Position numbers and translations under genes: made by a program | Origin: Strigamia acuminata | Taxonomy: Eukaryota > Arthropoda > Chilopoda > Geophilomorpha > Linotaeniidae | DNA: 64,000 nt | Direction: 5' to 3' | Assembly (NCBI GenBank): GCA_949358305.1 | Contig: OX442318.1 | Location: 1,226,501-1,290,500, forward strand | Shown: in pieces, positions 13,572 to 47,096 of the stretch | How the letters are laid out: every line of letters begins with the position of its first letter | How positions within the stretch are numbered: the stretch's first letter is position 1 | Notes under the pieces: generated by a model | What the model saw: the letters and a program-made list of their open reading frames with translations, nothing else | The model's database searches: none | Told to the model about the DNA's origin: nothing

Positions 13572-13576
13572 CTAGG

Positions 13577-18723: not shown

Positions 18724-19718
18724 ATGCGCGTGTTTCAGCCATTAAGCGGAATTCAACAACTAAGGAGAAGAAGACTGCGACACATTGTTGTTACTGTCAT
18801 AGCAGAAGAATCGGAGATACCACCATTTGTCAAATCTCTGAAAAACAATTCAAAAAAGGAAAAATTTAATCGTCATCTGTTTTTCGCATTACTTCTTGTC
18901 AATTTGGCAGTATGCATTTACCAAACTGTAGATCGGATATTGCATTACATGGATGAACCGACAACAGTCAATGCGCATTTCATTGAAACAGTGCATGGCA
19001 TTTTCCCGTATGTTTACTTTTTCCCACACACAACACAAGAATTTAATAATTTTAGAGCAAAAGTGAGTGGCAAAAAAAAAGATCTCAAAAGCTGTGATGG
19101 TAGAACAATAGCCGAAAGAGGATATGCCGATAATTATAAAGATAAATATAATCTACTTGATGTTTTAAAATACATGAGTATACCGAGTTACATAACTGAT
19201 GCACACTTCAAAATGGTAAAATTCTATCTATTTCTTGTTCTTACTTGTTAGTGTAATAAATGAGTAATCCTATTGCAGGGAAAATTGCGCATTAATCTGA
19301 CAATTCAAAATTACGATAGTTTTGTACAAGCTACTGCTCAAGTTTCAAGTCGTAAGTAAAACAAAATGCATTTACAATTGTTATTTCTAAATCCTTTATC
19401 GTTGATTAGCATTAAAGTTGCCATATGGATATTCTGATTGCAAGATGGTAATCAAACTAAAATTCCCAGCAAAATGCGAAATGGTTAATGTATGTTTATA
19501 ATGTTGCCGAAATTACAAAATTTGTGTAGTGCCCAAACTGTTAGACTTGTTCTTAAAATTTTCAGGTAAAAATAAATCCTTCACCGGTCTACTATTATGC
19601 ATCTGGTTTTATTGAAGGAGTGAAATTGTTACTGAATACAAAAGACATTGCAACCATTCATGGAGATAGAGAAAATTTGACAACAACTAGACATATTGCT
19701 ACAACTAATTTGGAAAAA
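18724..19718 (+). CDS. Two-unit (concatenated) DEG/ENaC channel, exons 1-4 (5' part)
   Basis: The 5' part of the gene that continues at 41800-44236. Exon 1 is 18724-19215 (ATG start, 164 codons), exon 2 19279-19351, exon 3 19410-19483 and exon 4 19566-19718. All have GT-AG borders and phases that fit (0, 1, 0, 0). Exon 1 encodes a basic cytoplasmic N-terminus, then TM1 of the first channel unit at about residues 51-71 (HLFFALLLVNLAVCIYQTV). The rest is ectodomain, including Cys in KSCDG and YSDCK. The start was chosen because the ATG opens the frame after AT-rich non-coding sequence and leaves a cytoplasmic tail of normal length. DEG/ENaC family channels pass Na+ in response to peptides, acid or mechanical force. 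The ligand here cannot be read from sequence. Intron 4 (19719-41799) was about 230 bp before a gypsy element landed in it. Confidence 0.8.
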
Positions 19719-19904
19719 GTAAGAAAACAAACAAACTTTACATAAAAAAAATTTAATCCAATATTTGTGTCATTCATGTCAAATGCATGTGCACCGAATC
19801 GATGTATTCCAATTTGAAATGCGGCAGAGAATCTTATTTTAACTTTTTGGAGCCCCTACTGTAGCATACATTTAAAAAAAATTAAATTTTAATTTCTTAC
19901 ATTA

Positions 19905-20117
19905 TGAAGAGTTCTTACAACTCGATGTGACTCTCTAATTTAGACACGGAAAACATGTTCACTCTCATTTATTGAACTCGTCATACACAACTGAATTCCA
20001 GAATATGTGTTGCCATGGTTAGTTTCCAAACAATCACCAACCATGGCACATTGTTACAACAATCATATAATACTGTCAATTCACACTTAATAGTTAATTT
20101 ATAATCAGAATCTAACA
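19905..20117 (-). repeat. 3' LTR of gypsy element
   Basis: 213 bp, identical by eye to 41536-41748. In element orientation it starts TGTTAGATTCTG and ends CTCTTCA. The bases just upstream of it in element orientation (20118-20130) read ACTGGGGAGGAA, a good polypurine tract. Confidence 0.92.
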
Positions 20118-20346
20118 TTCCTCCCCAGTTACAATGTTCACAACTTGTAATTTCACACTTTTCAAATTAACCCAAATAGCCACATCTAATGATTAAAACT
20201 TCTTCAATAAAACACTTTACAATTTTCAATTTGAGCCAAGAAAACACAAACTACAATTCTTATCTCATTGCTAATAAAAACGACCTTTTTATACAATTTC
20301 AAACAGTTTTCTTTACTTTTCACAACAACACTATTTAGCTCCATCA

Positions 20347-23176
20347 TTACTTTTCTTTGTCTGCCATCCGGCGCAACAACAGGCGAGTCCGCTCCGCGTC
20401 CTCCTTACTGTAGAGTTGCGCTTTTTCTGGAGCCCCTTTACTAGTCTTCTTTGCTGGTAAGGTGGTGCGTGGTGCCCCTCTCTCCAAAGGATCCGCCGTC
20501 CCACTTGGACCAGGTTGGTCTGGATCTTGTATGGGCTCCATCCGCACCATCTCCGCGACTTTTAGTCCGTGTTTGGGTAATCTCGCCACTGGTGCATTGC
20601 GGTAGCTGGCCAAAACCGTCTCCTCGTCATCTTCCTCCTCCCCCGAGGACAGGTCTTTATAATTAATCTCGATGTTCCTGGCCGCGCGCGTTCTAGGTCT
20701 CTGTTGCAAGTTGACGGCGTCGCGGTGGGGTTCCTCCATCTGCTGATCGACCGCTACCTCCTCGGCCATCGTCGGCGCGGGTGGCGCCTCCGGGGCTAGC
20801 ACTGGAACTTGACCGCCCACTGGTACCACTTGGGCTCCTACAGGTGTCTGCGCGGGTGTTGGGAGTCTCACAACTTGGGGTGGGGTGAGAAAAGGTTGCG
20901 GTGGCGTCTGTGGTGTTGGAGGTGTTGGAGGCAACTGGACGAGTAGCGTCCCTGGCAACGGCGCATACGTGTAAAGCCTCGGCTCGCCCCCACCTTCGGG
21001 GGTAACCGGCGCCACGACCGGCACTGAAGTCGCCACCTCGCTCGGGTCCGCCGCATCGCGTCTCCTCACGTGGTTCAGGTGTCTGACCACTTGCTTGTTG
21101 GTCTGGACATCCCTCAAGCGATAGACGACCTCGCCGCTCCTCTCCAAAACAACCCCCGGCCGCCACGGCGGGGTACTTGCTGGAAACGACTTGTACCATA
21201 GTCTGTCGCCCACAGCAAAGTTCCTGAAACGAGAGTTAGTAGCCGCCACACTCACCGCACACCTGGGTTTTACCAAATCCAAAAAAGTAAACGGCTGTCG
21301 CCCTATGAATAGCATCGCTGGCGACTGATTGTCCCGTCCGCGGAAACTCGTATGTTGGTAAAGCATGAGTCTGAGCAAGCGCAGTTCCAAATCTCCCTTG
21401 GTGAACTTTGCTAAACGGTCCTTGACCCAACGCACCGCACGTTCCGCCTGCCCGTTAGACTGGGCGTGGTATGGGGGGGAGAACATATGCTCGACCCCAT
21501 TTCTCCTCAAAAAACTGGCAAACTCTGCAGACGTAAACTGGGCTCCGTTGTCGCTGACCAAAAGGTGCGGGAGCCCAAAAGTACTAAACACACGCCTGAG
21601 AATCGAAATTGTGGTCGCTGAAGTGGCCGTTCGTGTCGCCCTCGCCTCGATCCATCCAGAGTAGGCGTCAACCAACACCAAAACCATCTGGGACTGAATG
21701 GGACCGGCGTAGTCAATGTGCACACGGGCCCACGGCTCCTCGGCACGCGGCCATGAAATAGGCAGTGCGTGTGGCGGTAAAGGTCTGCTTTGCGCGCAGA
21801 TGACGCACTTCTGCACGAAGTTAATGATTTGCGGGGTAATTCCCGCCCACCACACGGCACTGCGGGCCCTCTTTTTCATGGCCACAATGCCGGGATGACC
21901 TTCATGAAGGAGCCGCAGCATCCTAGGCTGCAAGGCCCCGGGCACCACCACTCTGGCCCCCCACAAGAGGACTCCCGCCATAAGTGAAAGTTCCTCAAAA
22001 CGGTTGGCATAAACAGCCAACTCAGGGCGACCTGCAAGCGAGGCAACATCTCCTCCACGGACCGCAGCAACCACCACAGTCAACTCTGTGTCGACTGCCG
22101 TCGCCTTCGCGACTTCCACCGCTGTCAACAAGTTCTCCCCCTCCATCTCAACCAAAAATACCGGTCGGTCATCAACCTCAGCTGGCGCCGGATCGCAAGG
22201 GAATCTGCTGAGGACATCAGCATTGGAATTGTCGGCTCCCCTGCGATACCGCAACACATAAGAATAAGCTGACAGCAGGAGGGCCCAGCGGAGCATTCTG
22301 GGGCTGACCACCAACGGAATTGGTCGGTCAGACCCCAAAATGCCCAACAAGGGCTTGTGGTCGGTGTAGATGGTGAACTCCCTGCCCATAAGATATATAT
22401 GGAACTTTTTCACCGCGAATACCACCGACAACGCCTCCTTGTCGATGTGCGCATAGTTACTCTCGGCACGGCTGAGGGATCTCGAGGCAAAAGCAACTGG
22501 ATGTTCTCTCTCCAGTTTGTCAACGTGGGCCAAGACCGCCCCTACCCCATAAGGGGACGCGTCCGCAGCGATCACCAGCGGACGATGAAGATCGTAGTAC
22601 GTCAAAATGGGAGCGGACGTTAAAGCTCGTTTGATCACGTCAAATGCCTGCTGCCTGCGCTGGTTCCAGACCCAAATTGCCTCCGCACACAATAGCTCGT
22701 AAAGCGGGGTCGCCTTGTCGGCCAAGTGTTCAATGAACACGGCGTAAAACGCCACCATCCCTAAAAATGTTCTAAGCTGCTTCACGTCAACAGGAGGTGG
22801 GATTGCCAAAACAGCCTCAACTTTTGACGAGATTGGTCTGACCCCCTTCTGACTAATTGAGAAACCCAAAAAATTTAGGCCACTCTCACAAAACAAACAT
22901 TTTTCCCTAGCCAGGTGTAAACCCCTATCAGCCAATCTACGAAAAATCTGCTCCAAAACCCACAAATGTTCTGGCAAATCCCACGTTGCGACAAGAATGT
23001 CGTCCAAGTAGACGAAGATGCGGGGCACCCCGTCCAGGACTGAAATAATAATCCGCTGGAAAATCCCAGCGGATGGCATGGTCCCAAACGGGAGCCTGGT
23101 AACGGCCATAAGGCCTTTTGGGGTGTTCACAGCCGCAATAACAGCCGACCTTTCTGATAGCGGAATTTGCAGATAC
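20347..23176 (-). CDS. Gypsy Pol, 3' part: RT, RNase H, integrase (disrupted)
   Basis: Continues 39269-41444 in frame once the copia insert and one GATAC copy are removed. RT has RLPFGTMPSAG, the catalytic YLDDILV and FLGFSISQKGV. RNase H has ADASPYGVGAVL, DKEALSVVFA and YTDHKPL. The integrase zinc finger is HEGHPGIVAMKKR with CVICAQ, and the DDE core is HIDYAGP, SDNGAQFTS and QSNGQAERA. A GPY/F-like module follows, then a Pro-rich C-terminal tail of about 200 residues. The stop is at 20347-20349, 230 bp before the 3' LTR. The domain order RT-RH-IN and the motifs are Ty3/gypsy. Confidence 0.93.
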
Positions 23177-23456
23177 TGTTGAAAGTATGGATTGATGAAC
23201 AAATTCCAGGCCAAAAGTGAGTAAAAGAACAAGATTTAATCATCTCATGCAAGCATGGAGAAAAATCAACAACAAGAGAACAAGTAATAACAACAGTTGC
23301 TAAGCAGTTAAAAAACAACTCCAACTACGGTAACCCAATTGATACATCAATGTTTACATGATAATAAACTATAAAATCATAAATAATTACAAATCAAACA
23401 TGTGTAACATCAATAATCAATTGCATATCACAAATCTCGGAGAACAAAAGCCAACA
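23177..23456 (-). repeat. 3' LTR of copia A
   Basis: 280 bp, matching 38989-39268 base for base by eye. In element orientation a purine-rich tract (AATGGGGGGCTC, 23457-23468) lies directly upstream of the TGTTGGC start. Confidence 0.92.
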
Positions 23457-23523
23457 GAGCCCCCCATTCTCCGAGACATGACTCAATCATATAACAAGAT
23501 ATAACAAAAGTAAATGCGAAAAC

Positions 23524-24673
23524 CTATCGCAAACTACTGTAAAAATGTTGACATAAATATCGAATGCGGGCGGGCGAGAAAAATTTTGTGAAGATGTCCG
23601 CAGGGTTTAATTCACCTGAAACTTTCCTCAAAACAAAAACACCCTCATTTAGCCAATCCCGCAGGAAAAAGAATTTCACGTCAATGTGCTTTGTCCTCCG
23701 ATTCTCTATATCGTTGCGGGTGAAAAAAATCGTCGACAGAGAATCAGAGAACATGGTTGGGGCCGGAAGTTGAAAAATCCGGGTCCGCTCAATCGCACCA
23801 TGAAGCCAGACAATTTCCTTTGCACCGTCCAAAAGCGCTAGGAATTCCGCTTCCATAATGGACAAGGCGCAATAGCGTTGCTTACAGCAACCCCAGGAAA
23901 TGGGAACCCCGAACACCGAAATCGTATAACCTCCGAAGCTCTTTCTTGTATCTCGATCTGAGATCCAAGAAGCATCGGAGTGCCCTGATAGAATATCTCC
24001 AGTGACCGCGGAAAGCTGAATTGAATATTCCCGCGTATTCTTCACATACTGGAGGATCTGTAGCAAAAGGGCCACGTGCCTTCCAGTAAAGCACGTGTTA
24101 TATTGTGACATAAGGATAACTGGAAAGAGGATATCGGGACGCGTTCGAGAAGCTAGAAAGAGCAGAGACCCAATGAGAGACCGATATGGGAATTCATCAT
24201 CCCTCAAAACACGTTCACCATCTCTAGCACAATTGACCATCGTGCCAACGGTAATCGGGACTTTGCACAAATGCTCGGAGGAAATTCCGTAGTCTTCAGC
24301 AATCTTATCAATGTAATCGCGCTGATGGATGCAGATTTTACCACCATCGCGATCAAATTGGACGCCCAACAACTTCGATACCGGACCCAAATCTGTTATC
24401 GTGAAAATTGCACGAAGGGCCTTAACAGTTCGATCACGCGGATCTTGTCCTTTGGTGAAAAGTACCATGTCATCAACATAAACAAGGATGACAGCATCAT
24501 AAGTGTTGGAAATAAATACGCCATTAATCCCAAGAAGCTTGTGGAAATTAATCCCTAGCAAAGCCTCAACTAGGCGGAAATTCCATTGCCGTCCGCTCTG
24601 ATGAAGGCCATAAAGGGCCTTATGAAGCCTCCATACCTTACCGGCATTCTGAGGAGTTTCCCAGCCCTTAGGA
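23524..24673 (-). CDS. Copia A Pol, 3' part: RT and RNase H
   Basis: Continues the 34337-37672 frame after the inner insertion. Removing that insertion with one AGGA copy gives an uninterrupted in-frame join. RT motifs are LHKALYGLHQSGRQW and the catalytic YVDDMVLF. RNase H has SDASWISDRDTRKSFGGY, MEAEFLALLDGAKE, FSDSLSTIFF and the conserved TKHIDVKFFFLRDW, with NPADIFTK near the end. The stop is at 23524-23526, just before the 3' LTR. Apart from the insertion this would be an intact copia. Confidence 0.93.
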
Positions 24674-26586
24674 TGTGACGGTGACGACCACAACTCCCAT
24701 TTAACAATGGTACCGGGAAGAGATCGCAATAAATAAACAGTGAATACAATACGAGATAAATACAAGACAGTTTATTGTTGGTAAACAATAATATCAAGGC
24801 TAAATTATACATAGGACTAATGCCGACATTTGGCAAGTTAAATCAGCTATTAAACTATACAAAGAATTGGCCAACTGGCCCTAGAATAATATCACTACGG
24901 GTCTGGAATATGGGAGCGGTTTCCCCATCGCTCGACCTGATTATAGATGTCATCTTAAGCCGGATGGCTGTGTCCTGGAGTCCGATACGGCTTCGCTGGT
25001 TTCCTTGGTTCGCTGTGTAAACTATCGCACGTCGATAAATCGAATGATCTGAGCATTGCGGTTGACTTTGTCTGCACCGCCACAACTTTGGGAGGATATT
25101 GGTGTAAGTAAATGTATTCATTTACTTATCAATATTCCACTTATGAATTATATTTAATTCATATCGTTGTGAATTCTTATTTAGATATTTCGGGAATAAG
25201 TTGTCGTCAACTTATCGGTTATATTGAGTTCAATATGAGATTAAGTCTTCTGACTTGATTTTGGTCCAACTGGTTGTCGAGTTTAAGTTTTGCTGTTATA
25301 AATAAAATGAAGATTAAGCTTCCCGTCGCAACACACAATTGCCATCGATTAGAATATACGCCTTGCCATGCAGAACGGTATCAAGCGTCCCCGGCGTCGC
25401 AGCACGGTCGTCCATCGAGTGGTTGACGGTACCACGTACACAGGGGTCGATAGCTCGCGGCTCCGCACAGCAGTTTTATCTCTCGCGGTACTAATAATAG
25501 ACCGACTGCTTTGGCATCGAATACCATGAGAATCAGCTTGCCAAACACTTGGTGCTACTCGTGGTTACTGTAAAACAGACTGCTTTGGCACCATCAGGTG
25601 AAGGAACCGATTCTCAACAATACCGATGCTACTCGTGGTAACGGAATACGTTCATACCGAAAAAGACAACTTGGTCCTGTCCGGAGGATACTGAATTGCA
25701 CAACGGCGGGTTCTCCTTCGGCGTCGCAACCGTAGACTGTAACATTTATGCAACATAATAATCCCAGCACTTCGACTTCAATTGCCGGCGGTGGCATGAT
25801 TCTGTAGAATCATGCAACGGTTCTTTGCGAATAAATCAACAAAGAACCAAAAGGTTTTTTACGTGAACAACGAATCATACTTCTTAAGTAACAATACCAA
25901 ACAGAAATAATCAAACAGAGCTGCGGAATGGCCGATTGTTTGGGTTTATATAACCTGACTGGATTTAAGGATTAATCCAGTCATCCAATTGGAACATGGG
26001 TTCCACGAATCCCTCCAATCCCGTATCACCGGAAGTGGATACGGAGGAGCATTTATGCAAATTATGCTAATCCTTGTTACAACCGGAACTGGATACCCAG
26101 GACCGGAAATGGGTTCCACCAATCAGATTGATCGGTTGACCGATTGATCGCTAAACATTCTGTCCCGCAGAAATGGAAGTTACATTGTATTTAACAATGT
26201 CAGATACTTAATATATATTTATATTAATATTTAACACAATTTATTCACTTGATTAAATATACGTTTATATTTAATCATGAGGTTTTCAAGTTCGTATTCG
26301 AATTTATCGCTAATTGCGATCGCGCCATCTAGTGGCAATATGGAGCATTGACAAATGCGGGTTTTAGCAGACGAATCTTCGTAATTATGCCGTGATACTT
26401 TAGTATCATGTGGAAATTAGTGTTTATTCTTAATAAACGAACATCTTTGTATTTGAAACATCATAAATGACTTTATTCTAGACATTTATCAGTTTTACAC
26501 AGAATATTGTAAAAATACCATCATATTGGCGCAACAGCGCTTTCTTGATAGAAAATAGGCATTTATAGCCATTGTAAACCGTCATA
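24674..26586 (-). repeat. 3' LTR of LARD-like element
   Basis: 1,913 bp, partner of 32424-34336 with no difference seen. In element orientation it starts TATGACGG and ends CCGTCACA. It contains a TATA-like GGTTATATAAAC (about 25946-25957 on the - strand) that could be the promoter. Short frames inside it are the same in both copies simply because the copies are identical, so they are not evidence of coding. Confidence 0.92.
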
Positions 26587-27181
26587 CATCCCCCTTAATA
26601 ACACAACTATATAATATTTTATAGAGTTTTCGTTATTCTCCTAATTAGCATAAATGCTATTTTCGGACTTGATGTATCTTGGAGATACCGTGACTTCCAA
26701 TTTCGAATTTGAGTTTACATAAACTAACTTGAATTATCTAAGTTCTGATTTTCTGCCGAAATAATCTTTTCTAATAGCCTAAATTCAAGTCCAGAATTTA
26801 TTTCCAAGTCTTCTTTTTGAAGAAACTTTCGTCATACATAAAATCATCATTTGTGTTATCACAAAATATTTATTTCATATGCCTAGTCAGATGTATCGCT
26901 ATAAATATACAATAAATAGCTTTTAGATGATAAGAGTTGACAATTTAAGAATCAAAATGTCCCCCTTAATTGTCATGACCGGAGTCACTTGGTATTCTTT
27001 GTACAATTGACTAATTTTAATTTAAACTAGTTGTCTTTTAATACTGTAATATTACTTTTCGAGAATTGTTAATTTTAACTTTATATTTTGTCCCCCTTTT
27101 CTTTAGAAGAGAGGTCATGATTTTTAGAAGAGGATTTTCTGTTTACACTATAATCGGGGAATCTTTGTGTATCATATCATG
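26587..27181 (-). promoter_or_regulatory. 3' non-coding region of LARD-like element with polypurine tracts
   Basis: Between the 497-aa frame and the 3' LTR. In element orientation AAGGGGGATG abuts the LTR (26587-26596). Two further GGGGGA tracts occur at about 26961-26966 and 27091-27097. The nearer one shares ATTAAGGGGG with the LTR-adjacent tract. The rest is AT-rich without recognisable genes. Confidence 0.6.
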
Positions 27182-28675
27182 TTAATCAACATGATTCTTT
27201 GCTAAATATTGAGCTCGCATATTTGCGAATTTCCGAGATCTCTCAGCCTGCTGTACTGATTTCTTTCGACGTTTTTCCTTTGGGCAGTTACATACAGTGT
27301 ACTGACTTGGCAGTGTAAATGACCGTGACGACCCAACTTTTTGTTTTAGGTCATCTCTGGAAAACCATACATGAATGGGACCCTCATTGGAAAACCATAC
27401 GTGGAAAGGACCCATATTTGGAATTGTGAAATCCCGCAACAAACGAGGGGATCTATATTTGACTCTAAGTCGTGGAACTGATGATTGGAAACCTGGGTTT
27501 TCAGTCAGTTTTTGAACATGTTGGTTTGTATTTGAAGTTTCTTCATCACCAGCTGGACTTGGTGACCGAAAACGCTTTTTTGAAGTTCTTAATTCCTCTC
27601 GTTGAGATGAATTATTCTGGATATTGCAGGGTTGCTTTCCAGACGCAAATTGTTGTATCTCCGTCAGATTGACGACTGGGACGGGTTTTAGTCGTTGGTT
27701 ACGGTATTGATTTCGAAATACGAATTGTTGCGCTTCGTTTATATTTTTAAATTCAGCTGAATTTAACTGGTATTGTTTACAATACTGTTCGAATTGATAC
27801 CGGATCTCCCGTGGGTTAGTCAAAAAACTTTCTTTTTTAGGTTTAAAATCATTCTCATTATCGTGTTGGTAATACTTTTTCAAGGGAAAAGTTTGCTTGA
27901 CTTTTTTTCGATTTGAAATGGGCGTTAGGTAGAATTGTCTTGGCTGGGGACTCTTCTTGGTAGACAAATCATACGTCCGCAAACATGAGTTTGTGATCGG
28001 CGATCGGGCACGTTGTTGTACGTTATTTGACTGCAAATGTTTGTTTGGAGTCCGAATATCTTTCCTTTGCGTTGATATTGGTGGCCCAAAACTTTTGTTT
28101 ACGGTTCCCAATTCTTTTGATAGCGGTAGGTTAATCGACAGATTAAGGCTAGCCACATATCGTTGTGCTTCAGCTGGATTAGCATATCGAACTGAAATTA
28201 GCTGATCTCGATTGTAAACGAGTTTTAATTTGTTCTGAACAACCGACTGGTTAGTTAACGAACTCTCTGGATGAGAATTATTAGGTTTATAATTCTCTTC
28301 CCCCTTATCTACCGAATTAGGTGGTTTAAACTTTTCTAACTTAGATCCCCTACTGGATGTTTGAAACATAGTATGAGAATCTTGATTCACTAAGTTTCGG
28401 CTGTATGTTTGTGGATTCCGTACTGGATCTTGATGTGAAGATTGAGATTGGGTACGATCTCGCCAGTTCCTAGCTTTTACATAGTCTGAAGCTTCGATTA
28501 TATTTTTAAACTTGGTTTTATCCAGTCCATGACGATTACAATACAGAGTAAAATGATCGGGAATCTTTTCTGTTTGATCGCCAAGTGGTACAGAACTTAA
28601 ATTTAAGTTTGTCTGCTTATTATTTCCTTTTGGATCGATCATATTCAATGGTTTTTGAGCCATAAAAAAATTCAA
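27182..28675 (-). CDS. Unrecognised 497-aa protein of the LARD-like element
   Basis: The only long frame in the element, from an ATG at 28675 to a TAA overlapping 27182-27184. The protein is basic, Asn/Gln/Ser-rich and probably largely disordered. Two segments look duplicated. Residues about 40-74 have F-x-x-Y-C...L...KFKNIIEAS-x-Y-V, and about 293-328 have F-x-x-Y-C...L...EFKNINEAQ-x-F-V. A weaker third (about 160-176) has NPAEAQRYV. Near 422-440 an 11-residue GP(F/I)HVWFS unit is in tandem. The C-terminus is highly basic (KEKRRKKS). No zinc knuckle, protease or polymerase motif is present. It may be a Gag-like nucleic-acid-binding protein or a captured host gene. I do not recognise the family. 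Confidence 0.65.
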   Translation of the reverse strand: MNFFMAQKPLNMIDPKGNNKQTNLNLSSVPLGDQTEKIPDHFTLYCNRHGLDKTKFKNIIEASDYVKARNWRDRTQSQSSHQDPVRNPQTYSRNLVNQDSHTMFQTSSRGSKLEKFKPPNSVDKGEENYKPNNSHPESSLTNQSVVQNKLKLVYNRDQLISVRYANPAEAQRYVASLNLSINLPLSKELGTVNKSFGPPISTQRKDIRTPNKHLQSNNVQQRARSPITNSCLRTYDLSTKKSPQPRQFYLTPISNRKKVKQTFPLKKYYQHDNENDFKPKKESFLTNPREIRYQFEQYCKQYQLNSAEFKNINEAQQFVFRNQYRNQRLKPVPVVNLTEIQQFASGKQPCNIQNNSSQREELRTSKKRFRSPSPAGDEETSNTNQHVQKLTENPGFQSSVPRLRVKYRSPRLLRDFTIPNMGPFHVWFSNEGPIHVWFSRDDLKQKVGSSRSFTLPSQYTVCNCPKEKRRKKSVQQAERSRKFANMRAQYLAKNHVD

Positions 28676-31600
28676 AATCTGACGATTTTAATTCTTTAAT
28701 TTATAAAGAAGACGAATATAATACACTTTTCAACAAGAAACACTTCTAAACTTTACTTTTGACAAAATAAAATTAAACTTCGCGTTTGTTTGACACGTGT
28801 TAGCTTTTGCAGGTTACACGGCACACAAAATTCGAATCGTGACTGAAATCGGGACGGCGTGGTCAAGATGACTCTGGAACACGTCTTCTGGTCTGGTCTG
28901 GATGCGAATGATCAGTATCTGATCTGGTCCTCCTTTAATAGCAGGGGGCTGGGGATCCCTAGATCTCCCAACTTCTGATTGGCGGATGTTAGTGTCGGCC
29001 AATGGTATAAAGGACGTTACATCTATTTAGTAGTTCTCTACTAAGTCCGTTCCCTTCGAGATTCAATTTTACCGATAAAATAAAATTCCTTCGGGAAGAC
29101 ATTCGTAAAATATTGTATTTTTCAAATGAAAATAAAATAAACTTACTTCAATCTTCTTGAACTTTGGGATTTTTACCAATCCAAATAATTAAATAACTTT
29201 TCTTCAAAAAATATTTTTCTTTTAATTATTCCGTTAGTGTGTGATATCGTTACAACCACAACTTTAATAAAGTTTTCTCAAACTCTCAATTTTTCTTATT
29301 CTTATTCAATTATCGTTCAAATAATCATTCCTTTGTAATTGAAATCTATTTTCGATTCCCAACATTGTGTATTCATTTCCAATAGGAAGAATAATTTGAC
29401 CAAGTCTTTACTTTTTCGGGTTTAAATTCCATTTTTCGAGTGTGAAAAAATAAATTTTCACCATCCATCTCCCCCTTTTTTAACAAATTTTTTTAACAAA
29501 TAAAAATTCGTTAAAATTCTTTAAATTTGTTTTGCGAGAAAAATTATCTAATTCTCTAATCTTCCAAAAGAAAATATTCGAAATTTTACTTTAAACGATA
29601 AAGTTATTGGTACAAATGTGTACTTGTTTTTCGGGAGAAAACTATTCGACAATCCTTTAGACTTTTGGGTAAAAATTATTCATCAAATCTTTCTTTTTTG
29701 ATGACAATTGCTTTGATTTTTCGAAAGAAAATATCTAGCTAAATTCCACTTTTCCTGAGCGGACAATTGTTTTCACAATTAGTTATTCCTTTGCGATATT
29801 TACGAAGGACGTGTCTTTGATTATTCGTTTTAATAATTTTCGTCCCCCTTATCTCTAATAACGAGATGTTTTTGCAGAGATCTTTTATCTTTTGAATGAA
29901 AGAATATTTAAATCTCAATTGTCGTAAATACCTTCATCTGCTGCAGCATTTCCTCAATTTGAACTTTTCAAATGAAAAGGCAAATCTGGAGAACTTTCAC
30001 TGTCAAACTTCTATTCCTATCGCGCCAAAATTCGTAATTCACTGGTTTGGAATTCCGTATAACACGTGACACAATAACAGTATCGATGTCACAATTAAGC
30101 AGTTTACTACTCGGTCCGCGCGAGGACATGTAAATTACTTTTTTCCGATAAAAATAATTTTTCTTTGAAAAATATTTGAAATTGATTTTTCACAACTACT
30201 TTTGAATGAAATAAAATGAAGTTATTCCAACTTTTCGTTAATTGCTCACACATAACATTCCCTTTACTGTGGGATTTGCATCGAAATTCCATTTTTAAAG
30301 AACCTTTCTTTTACTTATCGCAAATAAAACATATTCAATCGTTTTTCTGATTAAACTTTAACACGTAAATTACGAACGAAATATATGATGACATTCCATT
30401 AACCTTTAGGAAAATTGACTAAATTCTTAATTTTTAGAGAAAAATAATGTATCTAGAATCTTTCCTTTTCCGAATAAAATCTATGTTCAAAATAGAAGAT
30501 AAATCTTGTGCAATTCTTAGTTTTTTCGAATGGAAAAATACAACTTTTCATCAGCGGTGATTTATTTGATTTTTCCGAAAGAAAAATAATTACTTTGAAA
30601 CTTATTTTCTTCGTTTAAATCAGCTATCTGATTTTAAAGCTTCAATCCAATTAAAAAATATTCGCTCCGTAAATATTTCATGTGGCAAAGTTCATAGCCA
30701 CAAATGGATTTGTTATTCCGGTTTTAAGAAATCATGTGGGAAAATGTCCGATTAGATTACTAAAAATATTCGTTGTTTTTCAAACAGCTAAATTTCATTT
30801 AGAAATTCTCAAAATTTGGGAGACCCAAATATCGTTGGAAACTTAAAACACTGTTAAATTTCCGAAAGGAAAGATTGAATGAAATTCTTTTACTTTTCCG
30901 AGGGAAAGCGTTTATCGTGATTCGTAACTTTCAATGTAAAAAATACTATTCTACGTGGTCGGCAACTTCATTCGCCGCCATTTTATATTTTCTTAATTTC
31001 CATTGTCCCGAAGGAAAAAATGTACTTTTTGTGAAAATAGTTAATTCCTTCAAATAAAGGTAATATTCATTTCGATTTGCAAATCTTTTCTGCGAAATGG
31101 AGTGTGTTGTTTTTCTCCAACAACTAAATTATCTTTGGTACCGATGGCAGTGGAAAAATTAGTTCGCGACACTTAAATAAATCTCTACGAACCTTCTGTA
31201 ACATTTCTCCGCTGTCTTTTATCTGTTGTCCGCCATAATTTCCAAGCATTCGTTCGCACCTTGCGTTGAAGGTTTGAGTAGCTTCCCTGCTGCGTTTGAT
31301 ACGGAGATCGACGCGTATTGCTATGGCGCGTGGTCGCTGGCTATCGGTGTCGACGTACAGTTACAAGAAACTTAATTTCTTGTAAATATTTCCAAATAGT
31401 TGCGGTGTTTTCTTCGTTTTAACTTTTCAGGTGGAAAGATAAATTCGTAAGAAGTCCGCCTTCTAAACTTGTATGTTTTTAGCTTTTCGAAATAAAACAA
31501 ACTTCGAAAAAAATATCTGTATTCTTATTTCACTCGAAACTTTTTTTTGATTTCTTATTTAAAATACTTCGTATTCCTTAAATTGTCGAACGAAAATAGT

Positions 31601-31932
31601 AAAGAGAGTTCACTAAACGTTTCCATTTCGTCAGTTTAACTTTTCACATGAAAATATAAACTGAAAATCTATTTGTCTGTTTTAACTAAATTTTTTTTGT
31701 TAATATCGGATTCAAGATTCGCTTTTGCAATTCGATCGAATTAATTTGCAACCTATTTCAGTGATCGTGTGATAGGTCTATAACTTCCGAAATTCCTAGT
31801 TAAAGGACAGTTTTGGTGTTTCTCAAGAAAATAAACATGGTTTGAAACTGGTCTGTTTTTTAACTAAATCTTTTAGTTAAATATTTATCTCAAAATTCAC
31901 TTTTACAATTCTATCGAATTTAATTGCAACCT
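28676..31932 (-). promoter_or_regulatory. Long AT-rich leader of LARD-like element with recurrent short palindromes
   Basis: About 3.3 kb without a credible gene. Every 60-120 bp a short degenerate palindrome of the type TTTTC-(n)-GAAAA recurs, for example near 29120, 29690, 29965, 30525, 30576, 30860, 30893, 31422, 31485 and 31643. GGGGGA-type purine tracts (- strand) occur at about 29471 and 29843. It may act in RNA folding, packaging or priming. This is inference. Confidence 0.5.
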
Positions 31933-32421
31933 AATCTCGGTGGGACCTCCACGTGTGAGATTAGGTGGTAGTCTTTGAAATCCCTAAAATCTTCAAACGA
32001 AAATAATGAAGGAAAATCTACTACGTATTTCTATTTCATCAGTTTAACTTCTTCACATGGAAATATAAACTGAGAATTTAATCTGTCTATTTTTAACTTA
32101 AATCTTTTAGTTAAATATTTATCTCCAATATTCACTGTTGCAATTCAATCGAATTTAATTGCAACCTAATCTCGGTGGGACCTCCACGTGTGAGATTAGG
32201 TGGTAGTCTTTGAAATCCCTAAAATCTTCAAACGAAAATAATGAAGGAAAATCTACTACGTATTTCTATTTCATCAGTTTAACTTCTTCACATGGAAATA
32301 TAAACTGAAAATTTAATCTGTCTATTTTTAACTTAAATCTTTTAGTTAAATATTTATCTCCAATATTCACTGTTGCAATTCAATCGAATTTAATTGCAAC
32401 CTAATCTCGGTGGGACCTCCA
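31933..32421. repeat. Two 235-bp tandem repeats, each ending in a tRNA-Gln primer site copy
   Basis: Units 31952-32186 and 32187-32421 are nearly identical. Together with the upstream site at 31933-31951 they give three primer-site copies at exact 235-bp spacing. After the first two copies the + strand reads CGTGTGAGATTAGG. CGTGTGA is also the junction of the real site with the LTR (CG plus TGTGA). CCTAATCTC and GAGATTAGG flank each internal copy as a perfect 9-bp inverted repeat, placing the primer site in a hairpin. A decayed earlier unit is visible around 31640-31800. Confidence 0.9.
32403..32421 (-). promoter_or_regulatory. Primer-binding site, complementary to tRNA-Gln 3' end
   Basis: The + strand reads AATCTCGGTGGGACCTCCA, the T-arm/acceptor end of metazoan tRNA-Gln with CCA, as I know that tRNA. 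It lies two bases inside the 5' LTR. Identical 19-mers occur at 32168-32186 and 31933-31951. Confidence 0.82.
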
Positions 32422-32423
32422 CG

Positions 32424-34336
32424 TGTGACGGTGACGACCACAACTCCCATTTAACAATGGTACCGGGAAGAGATCGCAATAAATAAACAGTGAATACAAT
32501 ACGAGATAAATACAAGACAGTTTATTGTTGGTAAACAATAATATCAAGGCTAAATTATACATAGGACTAATGCCGACATTTGGCAAGTTAAATCAGCTAT
32601 TAAACTATACAAAGAATTGGCCAACTGGCCCTAGAATAATATCACTACGGGTCTGGAATATGGGAGCGGTTTCCCCATCGCTCGACCTGATTATAGATGT
32701 CATCTTAAGCCGGATGGCTGTGTCCTGGAGTCCGATACGGCTTCGCTGGTTTCCTTGGTTCGCTGTGTAAACTATCGCACGTCGATAAATCGAATGATCT
32801 GAGCATTGCGGTTGACTTTGTCTGCACCGCCACAACTTTGGGAGGATATTGGTGTAAGTAAATGTATTCATTTACTTATCAATATTCCACTTATGAATTA
32901 TATTTAATTCATATCGTTGTGAATTCTTATTTAGATATTTCGGGAATAAGTTGTCGTCAACTTATCGGTTATATTGAGTTCAATATGAGATTAAGTCTTC
33001 TGACTTGATTTTGGTCCAACTGGTTGTCGAGTTTAAGTTTTGCTGTTATAAATAAAATGAAGATTAAGCTTCCCGTCGCAACACACAATTGCCATCGATT
33101 AGAATATACGCCTTGCCATGCAGAACGGTATCAAGCGTCCCCGGCGTCGCAGCACGGTCGTCCATCGAGTGGTTGACGGTACCACGTACACAGGGGTCGA
33201 TAGCTCGCGGCTCCGCACAGCAGTTTTATCTCTCGCGGTACTAATAATAGACCGACTGCTTTGGCATCGAATACCATGAGAATCAGCTTGCCAAACACTT
33301 GGTGCTACTCGTGGTTACTGTAAAACAGACTGCTTTGGCACCATCAGGTGAAGGAACCGATTCTCAACAATACCGATGCTACTCGTGGTAACGGAATACG
33401 TTCATACCGAAAAAGACAACTTGGTCCTGTCCGGAGGATACTGAATTGCACAACGGCGGGTTCTCCTTCGGCGTCGCAACCGTAGACTGTAACATTTATG
33501 CAACATAATAATCCCAGCACTTCGACTTCAATTGCCGGCGGTGGCATGATTCTGTAGAATCATGCAACGGTTCTTTGCGAATAAATCAACAAAGAACCAA
33601 AAGGTTTTTTACGTGAACAACGAATCATACTTCTTAAGTAACAATACCAAACAGAAATAATCAAACAGAGCTGCGGAATGGCCGATTGTTTGGGTTTATA
33701 TAACCTGACTGGATTTAAGGATTAATCCAGTCATCCAATTGGAACATGGGTTCCACGAATCCCTCCAATCCCGTATCACCGGAAGTGGATACGGAGGAGC
33801 ATTTATGCAAATTATGCTAATCCTTGTTACAACCGGAACTGGATACCCAGGACCGGAAATGGGTTCCACCAATCAGATTGATCGGTTGACCGATTGATCG
33901 CTAAACATTCTGTCCCGCAGAAATGGAAGTTACATTGTATTTAACAATGTCAGATACTTAATATATATTTATATTAATATTTAACACAATTTATTCACTT
34001 GATTAAATATACGTTTATATTTAATCATGAGGTTTTCAAGTTCGTATTCGAATTTATCGCTAATTGCGATCGCGCCATCTAGTGGCAATATGGAGCATTG
34101 ACAAATGCGGGTTTTAGCAGACGAATCTTCGTAATTATGCCGTGATACTTTAGTATCATGTGGAAATTAGTGTTTATTCTTAATAAACGAACATCTTTGT
34201 ATTTGAAACATCATAAATGACTTTATTCTAGACATTTATCAGTTTTACACAGAATATTGTAAAAATACCATCATATTGGCGCAACAGCGCTTTCTTGATA
34301 GAAAATAGGCATTTATAGCCATTGTAAACCGTCATA
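32424..34336 (-). repeat. 5' LTR of LARD-like element
   Basis: 1,913 bp. The TATA-like motif is at about 33696-33707. In element orientation the LTR ends CCGTCACA, followed by CG and then the tRNA-Gln primer site. Confidence 0.92.
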
Positions 34337-38988: not shown

Positions 38989-39268
38989 TGTTGAAAGTAT
39001 GGATTGATGAACAAATTCCAGGCCAAAAGTGAGTAAAAGAACAAGATTTAATCATCTCATGCAAGCATGGAGAAAAATCAACAACAAGAGAACAAGTAAT
39101 AACAACAGTTGCTAAGCAGTTAAAAAACAACTCCAACTACGGTAACCCAATTGATACATCAATGTTTACATGATAATAAACTATAAAATCATAAATAATT
39201 ACAAATCAAACATGTGTAACATCAATAATCAATTGCATATCACAAATCTCGGAGAACAAAAGCCAACA
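38989..39268 (-). repeat. 5' LTR of copia A
   Basis: 280 bp. In element orientation it ends CATACTTTCAACA and is followed at once by TGGTAGCAGAGG, the primer site. Confidence 0.92.
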
Positions 39269-41444
39269 GATACGCTTGCCTGAGGTCAAGCGTACTGAAG
39301 AACCGCGCTCTGCCAATCGACGCAAGCAACTCGGCTATGCGAGGCAGGGGGTACGGGTCAGGCTGTAAATTAGCGTTCACGGTGGACCTGTAATCCCCGC
39401 ACAGGCGAACCCCCCCGTCTTTCTTTTGAACTGTGACCAGGGGAGTCCCCCACACGGAGAACGGAATTGGCTTGAACACCCCTTTGGAAATCAAATCGTC
39501 TATCTCCAAACTGACCGCATCTCTAAGTGGCAGTGGAATAGGCCTCGGCCTGTAAAATCTGGGAACCGCATCTGGTCTTAAAATAAGATCAACCGGTTCA
39601 CCTTTGTAAGTTCCAAGGCACTCGCTAAACACGTGTGCGTAACGCAATAACAATTCACTCAAGGAACCAGCTCTCTGGGCACTCGCACTCGACACTTCAA
39701 CGTGATCCACTGGGCTCGCCGACGGGTGTTGACCACTCACAGCAGCTCCGTCACCCTCCGCTGGCGGCGCCGGGTCACGTCCATCTCCTGAAATTAAAGC
39801 GGCAGAAATATTATGCCAACCAAACTTGTGTACAGCATCCCGACCAATAAGACTAGGGCCCTGACGCCCCACCACTACAAAATTTACCCTTGCTGTTACC
39901 TCACCCATATGCACATTCAGCCACACCTGTCCCAACACCTCAATGGGCTGGTGTTGGTATGCAAACAGCTTAACTGAAGTGGGGGTAATCGCCCTCCTTG
40001 AAATCAATCGCTTGGTCAGCAAGACGTTGCAATCAGTCGCATTCAGCACCGACAGCTCACTGCCGGTATCCAACAATAGGTTAAGCCTGAAAGAATTCAA
40101 AACCACCTGCACAATAAGGGGCGGCGACCTCACTCTCGCTCCAACGACATGGAACAAGGCGAAATCCTCGTCTTGCTCCTGTATCACGTTGATTGGAACG
40201 TTCCGCTGCCTCCACTTCTCATCGGCACCTCCTGCTCCACCAAAACTGCCGTCAACTTCGGCTGGAAACGTCGCCGGTGGGCACGCTCCCTCCTGATCGT
40301 TCGCCTTCTTACGCCACTCACCAATCATGCGGCCACCCGGTCGTTGATCTTGACCGGCTCTTGGTCCCAATGCTGGTTCAAAAGGGCAATCCCTAACGAA
40401 ATGCGGTCCGCCGCATTGAAAACAGTCGACGGGCGTGCCATCCCTTTTTACAGGTTGGCCGCCTCGCCCACTACTCTGCCCCTGGCGCCCGCGCCAAGGT
40501 CGCTGAAACGAACCACGTTGAGCACTGGTCCCTGCGCCTGAAAACCCGGGTGAACCGAATTGGTTGGCTCTTCCACGGCCCTTCTGCGGACCGCGGCGGC
40601 CACCCATCGACAACTGCATCAACGCCGCCGAAGCTGGCGCTTTGGTCGGCTCTTCATCCGTGAATGGCAACGGCTCTTCGCGTCCCGACGCCGCAATGTG
40701 GGCCATCTCGTGGGCGACGGCACGTTTTGTCACCTGTTCTGCCGTCAACGGCATGTTGAGAAGAATCTCGCGGACCAAAACCTCATTCCGCGATCCTCGT
40801 ACCACCTGATGGACGATCGCCCCGTCCGTTTCGTCCTTGGTTGCGAATCCGCAACGTTGAGAAAGAATCCGCAACTCTGCTATGTATTTTTCCACCGACT
40901 CTCCCTCGTGGCGTTTGCGCGCCCCGAATCGCTGTCGAGCCATATACGGGGTGTCAACTGACGTGTAGTGCTCCTCAACCACGTCCAAAATCGCATCCAA
41001 ACCCATCGTGACGACTTCCTTCGGATGCGCCCACCGCTTGATTTTATCGAACATTGGTATGCCAATGACAGTCAAAAGTAGCGGGACCTGTCTGTCTGCT
41101 TCCACCTTGTTCAACAGGACAAACTGCTGGTAAGTTTGCTTCCAGCTTGTCCACTCATGCAGCGTGGAACCGGAAAACGGCGGAATGCCGCCAAGCATCA
41201 ATTGCGCCATGGCTAACAGCAACGCAAAACCACACCAACCGATAAACCTCGTGTTCGACGACCCGTGTTCGATCACGTCGCTCCGACGTTCGTCTCGACG
41301 TCGAAATCTCTCTTGCACACGTCTACACGACGTCGCCGACGGCTCGCACGCCGCACGCCACCAATAAGAGTCCAAAGCTCCGCCCGAACGTCGACTCGCC
41401 GACGCGGCACTCATCAATTGCAGCAAAAGTAGGCAAAAACTCAC
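39269..41444 (-). CDS. Gypsy Gag-Pol, 5' part: Gag, protease, start of RT (disrupted)
   Basis: About 725 residues. It has a Gag capsid-like domain (HEWTSWKQTYQQF, YIAELRILSQRC) and an Arg/Gly-rich segment, then a single CCHC knuckle (CFQCGGPHFVRDC). The protease has LLDTGSELSVLN, and the N-terminal RT includes DPYPLPRI and the first catalytic Asp in STLDLRQAY. The frame then meets the TSD and the copia LTR at 39268. The rest of pol is at 20347-23176. The start is either the ATG at 41442-41444 or one 30 nt further in (MSAASAS). The frame itself shows no other damage. Confidence 0.92.
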
Positions 41445-41535
41445 AATTTCCTAATGTGTCCCATCTCGGGAGCTTCTTCTGTCCAACATACTGTCCAATT
41501 GTACTACTCAGGCTTCTTTTTATCGTGGATACCAC

Positions 41536-41748
41536 TGAAGAGTTCTTACAACTCGATGTGACTCTCTAATTTAGACACGGAAAACATGTTCACTCTCATT
41601 TATTGAACTCGTCATACACAACTGAATTCCAGAATATGTGTTGCCATGGTTAGTTTCCAAACAATCACCAACCATGGCACATTGTTACAACAATCATATA
41701 ATACTGTCAATTCACACTTAATAGTTAATTTATAATCAGAATCTAACA
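41536..41748 (-). repeat. 5' LTR of gypsy element, with adjacent primer-binding site
   Basis: 213 bp. In element orientation, one base after the LTR, comes TGGTATCCACGATAAAAAG (about 41516-41534), starting with the TGG that pairs with a tRNA 3' CCA. I could not assign the tRNA with confidence. Confidence 0.9.
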
Positions 41749-41799
41749 CATTAAATAACACAAAGGAATTCATTTGAAACTTGACAAATTTACTTTCAG

Positions 41800-44236
41800 T
41801 ATCACTTCCTTCACACGAAGAGAAATCCTTGCGATAACAATTTACACGGCTGTTTGCTCCCTTGTTTCATGAAGAATTTTACGTGCAGGTAAATTTGTAT
41901 ATACTTAAATATGCAGTAAAATTGGCGGAAACATATCTCAGGTTTCCATTTTACGATGCACGAAACCAACCAGAATGCCAGAATGATGAACTAAAGCGTC
42001 AACGTAGAAAGTGGATCCATTCACTTTTTGCTAATGAGAATGCAATAGAACTGTGCAAATGTCCTCATTTATGCCATGTGACAGAACTGAGCACAACCTT
42101 TGATACAATACCCTATTCTGAGAATATCCTCGATGTTTCTCTTCTGAATCATTTCGTTCGTACATTGCAAGAACAATTTTCTTACGACATAATCTCTTTG
42201 CTGTGCGACATTGGCGGAAACATCGGACTCTACTTCGGAATGTCTTGTTTGGCACTCGTCGAAATATTTGTTCACGGCTCCAAAATACCGCTTTTAATGT
42301 TCAGAAAAAATAATAAATCAAATTCAAAGTTAAAAGGAAAAATTCAAGCAATTCTAGAAATTAATAAGATAACGCACAAGCGAAGCAAACTGATAAAGAC
42401 TGCGCTACTATTTCTGATTTTCACATCGATTTACCTAGTTTACACTTCGATTGATACTTATTTTGATTATCCAATCACCAAATCAGTTGTTCTGGCTAGA
42501 GACAAAATCATTCAGTTTCCACGAATTGTACATTGCCGAGAATCTGAAGAAATAGTTAGAGTCAAGGAAAATGTAAGTGAACAACTGCACTATGATGTTA
42601 GTCATTACAAGCTTTATTACTTACTCCATCCATCGTCTAAATTCGCAAACAATTCTCTGGAATTATGGAAGGCTTCTTCTAATTTACAACACCATTATAT
42701 CCTACTCCAAGTAAGTAACAAGATTGATTTTCCTTTAAATGCATTTATTGCTCAATTTCACATTTTAAAACAAACTTTTTAATTTATTTTACTGAGTATC
42801 TGCTTTTTACCTCATCGTTCTTCCCTCTCCATTTTCGAATCTCCCTGCATTTTAATTGCTCGAACCAATCAGACCACTTATTCTCTGTAGAGTATTTGGC
42901 ACTCCATTTTCTTACGTTGCTCCTCCTATGTAATAAACACTTATGCTAATTCTACATTGGCGACTGGTCGCTTCCTGACTCCATCTAACGATATCCAGCC
43001 ACATCCCTTGCAATCCACTCAAATTCAAAGCAACAAACACATCAGTCTGTTGCTTTCTTTTTGTTTGCTTTTTGTTTTTTCTTTTCCCTTTTCCCACCCA
43101 GCCCACCTTTCGCATGACTACTCAGATTTTTCTCAAACAAACCAAATGTCTATTACAAGTATTGCCCAATTGATTGCTTTTTTACTATACAGTAGTAATC
43201 AGTACCTTTTAAGAACCCTAACACTTGTAGTACTAGTACAGTACTTTCAATTACAAATAACTATTTTTATAGAAGTTCCAAAAAGATGGTAAACCTTTTT
43301 TGCCTTATGGCAATGTGTCAGCTGTGTCAACTGTATTTGGAAACTGCACTGAATTTAAAAAAAGTAGAAGTAAATACAAAACACTTTATTGTTTTCTCAC
43401 TTTTAAAAGTTTACAGTTGATCTGCCTTATCGTCCGCAAAATAACCATTTAATTGTTACCTATTACTTTCGTAATATTTTCAAATGGAATGTAAACCAAC
43501 CGGTGAGATCTTCCGATGTTTTTATTTCATTCAGTTGATTATTTTGATTGCATTCATTCTAGAACTTCATTCTACCACAGAACCATTATCTTCACCCGAA
43601 GTTTATTGTTAACACACCCAGTTTGAGTTTTGTTCGAATTCACATTTCTCGTAAAACGGTAATGTTTGTACAAAAACATTCACTACGGTATTTGCAAGTT
43701 TATTCTTTTTAGTTGGTTCGCATAAACACTCCAAAAAACCCTTGTGCAGGGAATGACCGAGTGTCGGAATGCGAGGCACAATGCTACAAAGACAAGCTGC
43801 AGATACAACCATTCAATTGCAGGTGTGTGTTTTCAATACAACACTTGCTTGCTCAAAATAATTTTTCAAACATTCACAATTTCTTCATCCGTTTAGACTG
43901 CCATTTATGGAAACGAGTAAGATACCGTTGTGCATGACCACTGAAACGGCCGAAGAAACTGTTAAAATGTATTTGGAGGCTCAATTCAAGACAGATCCTC
44001 ACAAAGACTGTAACTGCCCATCACGCTGTGAACAAACAATATTCCTATCTCTAGTACAACAGCAACTGAATAGAGAGCGCTTCAGCAGAAATACATTCAC
44101 GATTGACAGCAACATTCGAGAAATAATTGCAGAAGAGAAACAACTTTCTATCGTCAAGTTGTTTTGTCAAATGGGATCAATTATTGGAATTTTTACGGGT
44201 CTCTCAATATTTGCACTCGTCGAATATTTCATATAA
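41800..44236 (+). CDS. Two-unit (concatenated) DEG/ENaC channel, exons 5-11 (3' part)
   Basis: Exons: 41800-41888, 41942-42710, 43273-43369, 43417-43502, 43563-43658, 43713-43822 and 43897-44236 (TAA stop). With exons 1-4 the coding length is 2,379 nt, exactly 793 codons. Exon 5 gives the Cys-rich end of unit 1 (NPC, HGC, LLPC, FTCR). Exon 6 is the key exon. It encodes CKCPHLC, TM2 of unit 1 (about residues 376-403, filter Gly393-Met-Ser395, Glu401), then a basic 40-residue linker (404-445), then TM1 of a second unit (about 446-466) and its FPRIVHC segment, with no stop between. Exons 7-11 give the second ectodomain (NPC, CEAQC, FNCR-LPF, C718-N-C-P-S-R-C724) and a second TM2 with filter Gly781-Leu-Ser783 and Glu789. 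The protein ends three residues later with no cytoplasmic tail. So it is predicted to have four membrane passes, a natural covalent dimer of a channel family that works as trimers. Confidence 0.82.
42711..43272 (+). other. Intron 6 of the two-unit DEG/ENaC gene
   Basis: 562 bp between GTAAGT (42711) and the acceptor TTTTTATAG (43272). It holds a pyrimidine-rich stretch (about 43060-43090). No exon or mobile element is recognised inside. Confidence 0.6.
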
Positions 44237-44783: not shown

Positions 44784-44998
44784 TGTAGTTTTTGTTCTAA
44801 TATGTTGGAGGCATAAAAATGGAGACGCGTGGCTTGTTAGGTGAAATATTAACAGTGATGGTTTTAATCTAAAACAGATGTTTAAAAATGCGCGGAGCAC
44901 TAAATACAAAACAGGGCACTGATTGGTCAGTGCCAAATACAGGTGCACAGGTGGCAAAGACACCTGGCGGACAGGAATATAACATTCAATAAACAACA
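44784..44998 (-). repeat. 3' LTR of copia B
   Basis: 215 bp, identical to 49357-49571. In element orientation it is preceded by CCATTCAGGGGAAG (44999-45012), a polypurine tract. Confidence 0.92.
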
Positions 44999-45119
44999 CT
45001 TCCCCTGAATGGAAATATTCCTACATTTCAAAATTCAAAACATTTTTCTTAAGCAATTTAGACATTTAAACATTAAAGTATTCATTCACAAACAATTCAA
45101 ATATTAAAAACAATATTTC

Positions 45120-47093: not shown

Positions 47094-47096
47094 GTC

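What the first reader, a model, noticed from the sequence alone, without database searches (positions are those of the whole stretch)
18724..44236. A natural two-in-one DEG/ENaC channel: two complete channel units in one frame
Seen: exon 41942-42710 is one open frame that contains the C-rich motif, TM2 and G-M-S filter of one unit, a basic linker of about 40 residues, and then TM1 and the post-TM1 FPRIVHC segment of a second unit, with no stop. Five upstream and five downstream exons fit in phase (2,379 nt, 793 codons). Known: DEG/ENaC/ASIC channels are trimers of two-TM subunits. Inference: a covalent dimer with four TMs would force unusual stoichiometry, either two units plus a separate third subunit or four units with one left out. 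I know of no natural tandem DEG/ENaC described.
Basis: partly seen in the sequence, partly recalled or inferred. Interest (0 to 1): 0.88.

Follow-up and report, generated by a model that had tools for sequence, protein, structure and literature searches.

The report
Centipede channel with two fused subunits
A centipede gene appears to encode two complete sodium-channel subunits joined in one protein, an arrangement of a normally three-part channel that related centipede genes share and that I did not find described.

Summary
Exon 41942-42710 is one open frame with the end, TM2 and G-M-S filter of one DEG/ENaC unit (A), a basic 40-residue linker, then TM1 and FPRIVHC of a second unit (B). An 11-exon model gives 790 residues. 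Pfam finds two ASC stretches. Both units share the intron-phase series 0,1,0,0,2.

It is not a one-off. All five significant protein hits are from the centipede Strigamia maritima. Four of the five read through TM2A-linker-TM1B; the fifth lacks the linker in its gene model. Unit A is 57-63% identical to Strigamia unit A, and unit B 49% to Strigamia unit B. A and B share only 17-25%. An upstream neighbour ends in another intact unit B.

The 22-kb intron is a young nested LTR-retrotransposon insertion in a 232-bp intron. The closest solved structures are centipede BRTNaC1 and PDPNaC1, one unit per chain.

Unproven: a full-length transcript, stoichiometry, function. No full-length tandem protein was found, both structure models failed, and the window's genome could not be searched.

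The parts
18724..19215 (+). exon 1: start codon, N-terminus, TM1 of unit A and start of its extracellular domain (164 aa)
   Evidence: Pfam ASC on the ORF holding this exon 19.8 bits, below the cut-off
19279..19351 (+). exon 2 (73 nt), unit A
   Evidence: AG/GT sites and phase 0 to 1; no homology support of its own
19410..19483 (+). exon 3 (74 nt), unit A
   Evidence: phase 1 to 0; matches residues 1-16 of P0002, weak alone (21.6 bits)
19566..19718 (+). exon 4 (153 nt), unit A
   Evidence: phase 0 to 0; matches residues 15-41 of P0002, weak alone (20.0 bits)
41800..41888 (+). exon 5 (89 nt), unit A, beyond the transposon-filled intron
   Evidence: phase 0 to 2; lies within the match to residues 36-79 of P0002 (48.9 bits), colinear with exons 3-4 and 6
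41942..42710 (+). exon 6, the fusion exon: cysteine-rich end, TM2 and GMS filter of unit A, basic linker, TM1 and start of the extracellular domain of unit B
42273..42392 (+). linker between TM2 of A and TM1 of B (residues 405-444, 11 K/R and 1 acidic)
   Evidence: no in-frame stop
43273..43363 (+). exon 7 (91 nt), unit B
   Evidence: phase 0 to 1; P0002 match
43417..43502 (+). exon 8 (86 nt), unit B
   Evidence: phase 1 to 0; within the P0003 match
43563..43658 (+). exon 9 (96 nt), unit B
   Evidence: phase 0 to 0; P0003 and P0005 match
43713..43822 (+). exon 10 (110 nt), unit B
   Evidence: phase 0 to 2; P0003 and P0005 match
43897..44236 (+). exon 11 (340 nt with stop): cysteine-rich end, TM2 and GLS filter of unit B; ends just after TM2
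   Evidence: Pfam ASC on the ORF holding this exon 31.4 bits
19905..41748 (-). nested LTR retrotransposon insertion in intron 4 (LTRs 19905-20117 and 41536-41748, 100% identical; target duplication CATTA at 19900-19904 and 41749-41753)
480..4703 (+). upstream neighbour: exons 480-534, 1698-1762, 1960-2055, 2721-2830, 4367-4703 of another unit B, intact frame, same intron phases; its fusion exon, if it has one, would lie before the window

Best explanation
The locus is an intact protein-coding gene of a centipede, probably geophilomorph, that encodes a four-transmembrane DEG/ENaC protein: TM1A-ectodomain A-TM2A, a short basic cytoplasmic linker, TM1B-ectodomain B-TM2B (reading frame and splice sites shown; expression inferred). 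A and B are old, different paralogues, so the chain is a built-in heterodimer. Inferred mechanism: the linker makes A and B of one chain neighbours in a trimeric sensory cation channel; the third place is taken by a unit of a second chain or by a separate single-unit subunit. Unit A, whose TM2 keeps the D-I-G-G stretch and G-M-S, is the main pore unit. Unit B, with a divergent TM2 (CQMGS, GLS, no C-terminal tail), is the modulating unit. I put the gene-level claim at about 0.85 to 0.9 and the specific assembly at about 0.35.
For: Single open fusion exon and 11 in-phase exons with AG/GT sites. Two Pfam ASC stretches in the whole model, the better one covering profile 16-454 of 455 in unit A; unit B given alone covers 28-453 of 455. 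Intron phases 0,1,0,0,2 in both units, and the last intron of each unit falls at the same C-R codon. All 5 hits of 675 candidates are Strigamia maritima; 4 of 5 read through TM2A-linker-TM1B. P0002 is colinear with exons 3 to 7, bridging the 22-kb intron; P0005 runs to the end of B. A with A 57-67% identical and B with B 49-52%; A versus B 17-25%, no closer than either to BRTNaC1 (20-28%); FastTree separates the three B from the four A (0.989), 8 sequences, P0003 and the short A part of P0005 left out. A against B local score 143 versus shuffles 37.5, SD 5.9. TM2A pairwise identity 0.88 in five sequences, P0005 left out. Linker 11 K/R to 1 acidic, as the positive-inside rule expects of a cytoplasmic loop (general knowledge). 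Engineered ASIC1a dimers are functional (PMC4529235 passages).
Against: No transcript or protein evidence. No full-length tandem protein in the database: only the 396-aa P0005 among 5233 candidates, none among 686. These negatives are weak, because one search also missed P0002, a known relative inside its length range. The relatives are partial predicted proteins, and P0005's gene model lacks the linker and half of TM1B. P0002's matches to exons 3 and 4 are weak one by one (21.6 and 20.0 bits), and exon 2 has no homology support. The linker is conserved only at 0.38, about the rate of the ectodomain that follows (0.41). The His-Gly motif before TM1 is missing in both units. This copy carries a 21.8-kb insertion that could hurt splicing. 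Structure models had mean pLDDT 38.4 and 33.9 and say nothing.
Confidence: 0.8

Rival explanations
1. The locus makes two separate subunits: a 3' transcript or internal start gives unit B alone, or the basic linker is cut after translation, so mature channels are ordinary trimers of single units.
For: An internal Met lies at residue 413, in the linker. An AATAAA hexamer lies at 42312, in the linker. The linker is rich in K/R. Two of the five aligned sequences (P0002, P0004) share a Met at one linker position (alignment, by eye). The Drosophila paper on DEG/ENaC genes cites operon-like transcription of related genes (reference title only).
Against: No in-frame stop follows TM2A before TM1B has been read, so unit A has no terminator of its own, and polyadenylation at 42312 would give a stopless mRNA. 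No Met position in the linker is common to all five aligned sequences (alignment, by eye). The linker is stop-free in four Strigamia proteins too. Cleavage after translation is not tested by any of this.
Confidence: 0.12
2. Pseudogene or dead allele: the recent 21.8-kb nested insertion has disabled this copy, although related loci may be active.
For: LTRs are 100% identical, so the insertion is young and the frame may have had no time to decay. The insert is antisense (by its frames) and very long.
Against: All 11 exons keep their frame and AG/GT sites, and long transposon-filled introns are often spliced (general knowledge). This rival does not touch the Strigamia copies.
Confidence: 0.06
3. 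Assembly or gene-model artefact that fused two genes.
For: Only predicted, partial proteins support the relatives, and one of the five lacks the linker.
Against: The fusion is inside one exon, and the same fusion recurs in four proteins of a separate gene set at 47-52% identity.
Confidence: 0.02

Closest known systems
BRTNaC1 (broad-range thermal receptor 1, Scolopendra; PDB 8ymr-8ymx)
   Same: Best solved-structure match for unit B (E 3e-9) and unit A (E 6.4e-7); centipede; short DEG/ENaC chain of 431 aa
   Different: One unit per chain; TM2 reads GIC where A has GMS and B GLS (alignments); only 20-28% identical over the compared end of about 110 residues
PDPNaC1 (Scolopendra antennal proton-gated channel; PDB 9jf7, PMC12714832)
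   Same: Centipede DEG/ENaC of 421 aa, antennal neurons; matches unit A (E 1.9e-6)
   Different: Homotrimer of single two-TM subunits (abstract; passages), nine exons (section 7)
Strigamia maritima uncharacterised proteins T1JF29, T1IVW1, T1JC02, T1JFH9, T1IZ33
   Same: Same TM2A-TM1B order, 39-52% identical over the matched part
   Different: Partial predicted proteins of 183-416 aa, named only 'uncharacterized protein'; one lacks the linker
Engineered ASIC concatemers (PMC4529235, PMC10329638; passages only)
   Same: Two or more DEG/ENaC subunits joined head to tail by a short linker; the ASIC1a dimer is functional
   Different: Man-made; the ASIC1a dimer joins identical subunits, whereas natural A and B are old paralogues

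Membership tests
DEG/ENaC (Pfam PF00858 ASC) | Sequence match to the family profile | tested here: met
   86.3 bits for the whole, two stretches; unit B alone 41.9 bits; cut-off 23.6
DEG/ENaC (Pfam PF00858 ASC) | TM1, large cysteine-bearing ectodomain and TM2 in each unit | tested here: met
   Hydrophobic segments at about 48-73, 386-414, 442-466 and 761-790 (printed before it stopped with an error); 14 Cys in unit A and 11 in unit B, membrane parts included
DEG/ENaC (Pfam PF00858 ASC) | G-x-S filter in TM2 | tested here: met
   GMS at 393 (A), GLS at 779 (B); the upstream unit B has SLS instead
DEG/ENaC (Pfam PF00858 ASC) | His-Gly motif before TM1 (highly conserved per PMC10148893 passages; I take it as usual rather than strictly defining) | tested here: not met
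   HG occurs only at 91, 245, 280 and 405, none of them before TM1 of A; 405 lies at the start of the linker, about 40 residues before TM1 of B, and the aligned Strigamia sequences do not have it
DEG/ENaC (Pfam PF00858 ASC) | One two-TM unit per polypeptide | tested here: not met
   Two units in one predicted chain; hence a variant, not an ordinary member
DEG/ENaC (Pfam PF00858 ASC) | Trimeric cation channel | not testable with these tools
   Needs expression and structure
BRTNaC1/PDPNaC1 centipede sensory channels | Closest relatives by tree | tested here: inconclusive
   Best hits among solved structures only; the one small tree held no other DEG/ENaC
BRTNaC1/PDPNaC1 centipede sensory channels | Heat or proton gating, antennal expression | not testable with these tools
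   No expression or current data

The most novel reading that the evidence does not exclude
Geophilomorph centipedes carry a family of natural covalent A-B heterodimers of DEG/ENaC subunits (five distinct Strigamia maritima sequences, four with the fusion intact), older than the divergence of these paralogues. One chain fixes which two units sit side by side in a trimeric sensory channel, so that trimers must leave one unit out, recruit a third subunit, or hang B units outside an A3 pore.
Probability: 0.6. Interest if true: 0.82.

Novelty: new variant of a known kind. Interest (0 to 1): 0.72.

Why it matters
DEG/ENaC channels are trimers, and how mixed trimers are composed has been studied with artificial concatemers. 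A natural, conserved two-unit chain would be an evolved solution to subunit order in a trimer, where two does not divide three. Geophilomorphs are blind, and the S. maritima genome lacks known arthropod light receptors although negative phototaxis is shown in other geophilomorphs (PMC4244043 passages). [quoted passage not shown] A role of the tandem family in such sensing is a guess, but a testable one. The genome paper also lists sodium transport among functions enriched in lineage-specific duplicates; it does not, in the passage seen, say which genes.

Tried and rejected
Structure prediction of the fusion exon (A1, 6 sequences) and of P0005 (A2, 6 sequences): mean pLDDT 38.4 and 33.9. No fold search was run on them because they are meaningless. 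A composite query lacking exons 2-4 found only P0005 among 5233 candidates and missed the known relative P0002; the full model restricted to residues 325-575 found nothing among 686. A chance-open-frame reading is not excluded by this locus alone (1.76% of shuffles stop-free) and was rejected because the fusion recurs. A recent internal duplication was rejected because A and B are only 17-25% identical. One search translated the exon one base out of frame and showed stops; the right frame is. One search printed nothing and one search stopped with an error after its first part; both were rerun. A first guess at the upstream neighbour's exon ends was wrong and was corrected. Literature. No paper on a tandem DEG/ENaC appeared in those listings; some searches showed only 20 of 64, 20 of 42 and 20 of 1,477 papers.
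Full report
Observation. In its frame, 41942-42710 is one open exon. It runs from the cysteine-rich end and TM2 (CDIGGNIGLYFGMSCLALVEIFV) of one DEG/ENaC unit, through a basic linker, into TM1 and FPRIVHC of a second unit. The frame stays open to 42780, past the donor at 42710. I rebuilt the gene: 11 exons, all with AG/GT sites and matching phases, 2373 nt, 790 residues plus stop. Exons 2 to 4 (19279-19718) fill the gap; exons 3 and 4 were found by their match to a Strigamia maritima protein (21.6 and 20.0 bits, weak one by one but in order), and exon 2 by its splice sites and phase. Pfam gives two ASC stretches, 86.3 bits against a cut-off of 23.6; unit B given alone scores 41.9 bits over profile 28-453 of 455.

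The long intron. Intron 4 is 22 kb because an LTR retrotransposon of gypsy type (type by eye, from the ORF translations) sits in it. Its 213-bp LTRs (19905-20117, 41536-41748) are 100% identical, begin TG and end CA, and are flanked by CATTA on both sides. Inside it lies a second LTR pair (23177-23458, 38989-39270; 100%), and inside that a third (24674-26586, 32424-34336; 100%). Without the outer element the intron is 232 bp. The insertion is young and says nothing against the gene's continuity. It could still harm this allele.

Relatives. The protein search with the fusion region returned 5 proteins at E up to 0.001 among 675 candidates, all from the geophilomorph Strigamia maritima. Four of the five (P0001-P0004) read without interruption through TM2A, linker and TM1B. 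Identity is 52, 47 and 49% for P0001-P0003 and 50% for P0004. P0005 has TM2A and all of unit B, but its gene model lacks the linker and half of TM1B. P0002 is colinear with exons 3 to 7 on both sides of the 22-kb intron. Results against: a composite query found only P0005 among 5233 candidates, and a search for long proteins with the fusion found none among 686. So no full-length tandem protein turned up. These negatives are weak, since one search also missed P0002. The relatives are predicted, partial proteins. The species of the window is not known; no hit was identical. Strigamia acuminata has a published genome (PMC10556566, search listing and passages) and is one possible source.

Two old units. 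Over the last 110 residues or so, unit A of the window is 57-63% identical to Strigamia unit A (three sequences, one partial), and unit B is 49% identical to the one Strigamia unit B compared. A against B is 17-25%, about as far as either is from BRTNaC1 (20-28%). FastTree parts the three B from the four A with support 0.989. This is with 8 sequences; P0003 and the short A part of P0005 were left out. A and B are nevertheless homologous (local score 143, 500 shuffles 37.5, SD 5.9, maximum 69), share the intron phases 0,1,0,0,2, and have their last intron at the same C-R codon. So two long-separated paralogues were joined before these sequences diverged. The head-to-tail neighbour upstream (480-4703) is another intact unit B with the same phases, about 52% identical over its last exon. 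Whether it too is fused to a unit A cannot be seen, as the window begins inside it.

How it may work. By topology the linker is cytoplasmic: it follows TM2, precedes TM1, and has 11 K/R to 1 acidic residue. Unit A keeps the D-I-G-G stretch and the G-x-S filter, and TM2A is the most conserved part of the fusion exon: pairwise identity 0.88, against 0.38 in the linker and 0.41-0.60 elsewhere (five sequences, P0005 left out). Unit B has CQMGS in place of the D-I-G-G stretch, GLS as filter, and ends right after TM2. The upstream unit B even has SLS. Neither unit has the His-Gly motif before TM1 that forms the lower gate in ASIC1 (motif described in PMC10148893 passages; tested). I infer that A makes the pore and B modulates, and that one chain places A and B side by side. 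How two-unit chains fill a trimer is open. In ASIC1a an engineered dimer is functional (PMC4529235 passages), although that paper argues for a tetramer.

Known relatives. The best solved-structure matches are two centipede channels: BRTNaC1 (unit B E 3e-9; unit A E 6.4e-7) and, for unit A, PDPNaC1 (E 1.9e-6). PDPNaC1 is a homotrimer of two-TM subunits with a nine-exon gene in antennal neurons (PMC12714832, abstract, passages and sections 7 and 13). These are best hits among solved structures, not a phylogeny. My literature searches, limited to open-licence papers and partly to the first 20 listed, showed no natural tandem DEG/ENaC. The held main text of the S. maritima genome paper does not contain ENaC, pickpocket or degenerin.

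Limits. There is no transcript, protein or current. The window's own genome could not be searched, because the tool did not answer in eight tries. Both structure models failed. Linker conservation was judged on predicted proteins without DNA, so selection was not measured. An internal Met at residue 413, a linker Met shared by position in P0002 and P0004, and an AATAAA at 42312 leave room for separate products, but no stop codon lets unit A end on its own.

Noticed in passing
7017-13573: LTR element with a 1767-aa uninterrupted frame (minus strand, 7615-12918), LTRs 99.5% identical; looks like a young Bel/Pao element (type by eye) between the two channel genes.
   Followed up: partly
13567-14232 (-): 221-aa frame resembling a mariner/Tc1-type transposase (by eye), abutting the LTR element.
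   Followed up: no
24674-34336: Element with 1913-bp identical terminal repeats nested in a copia-like element nested in the gypsy-like one (types by eye); it holds a 501-aa frame (27182-28687, minus) with no significant Pfam match.
   Followed up: partly
44784-49571: Copia-like element (by eye) with 215-bp identical LTRs just downstream of the channel gene; more copia-like frames at 57159-60860.
   Followed up: no
4665-4673: The upstream unit B has S-L-S where the filter G-x-S is expected (IWTSLSIF), a further departure of B-type pores.
   Followed up: partly
15029-15303 and 49799-50342: Repeat blocks that resemble each other at about 71-86% identity, one on each side of the channel gene.
   Followed up: no
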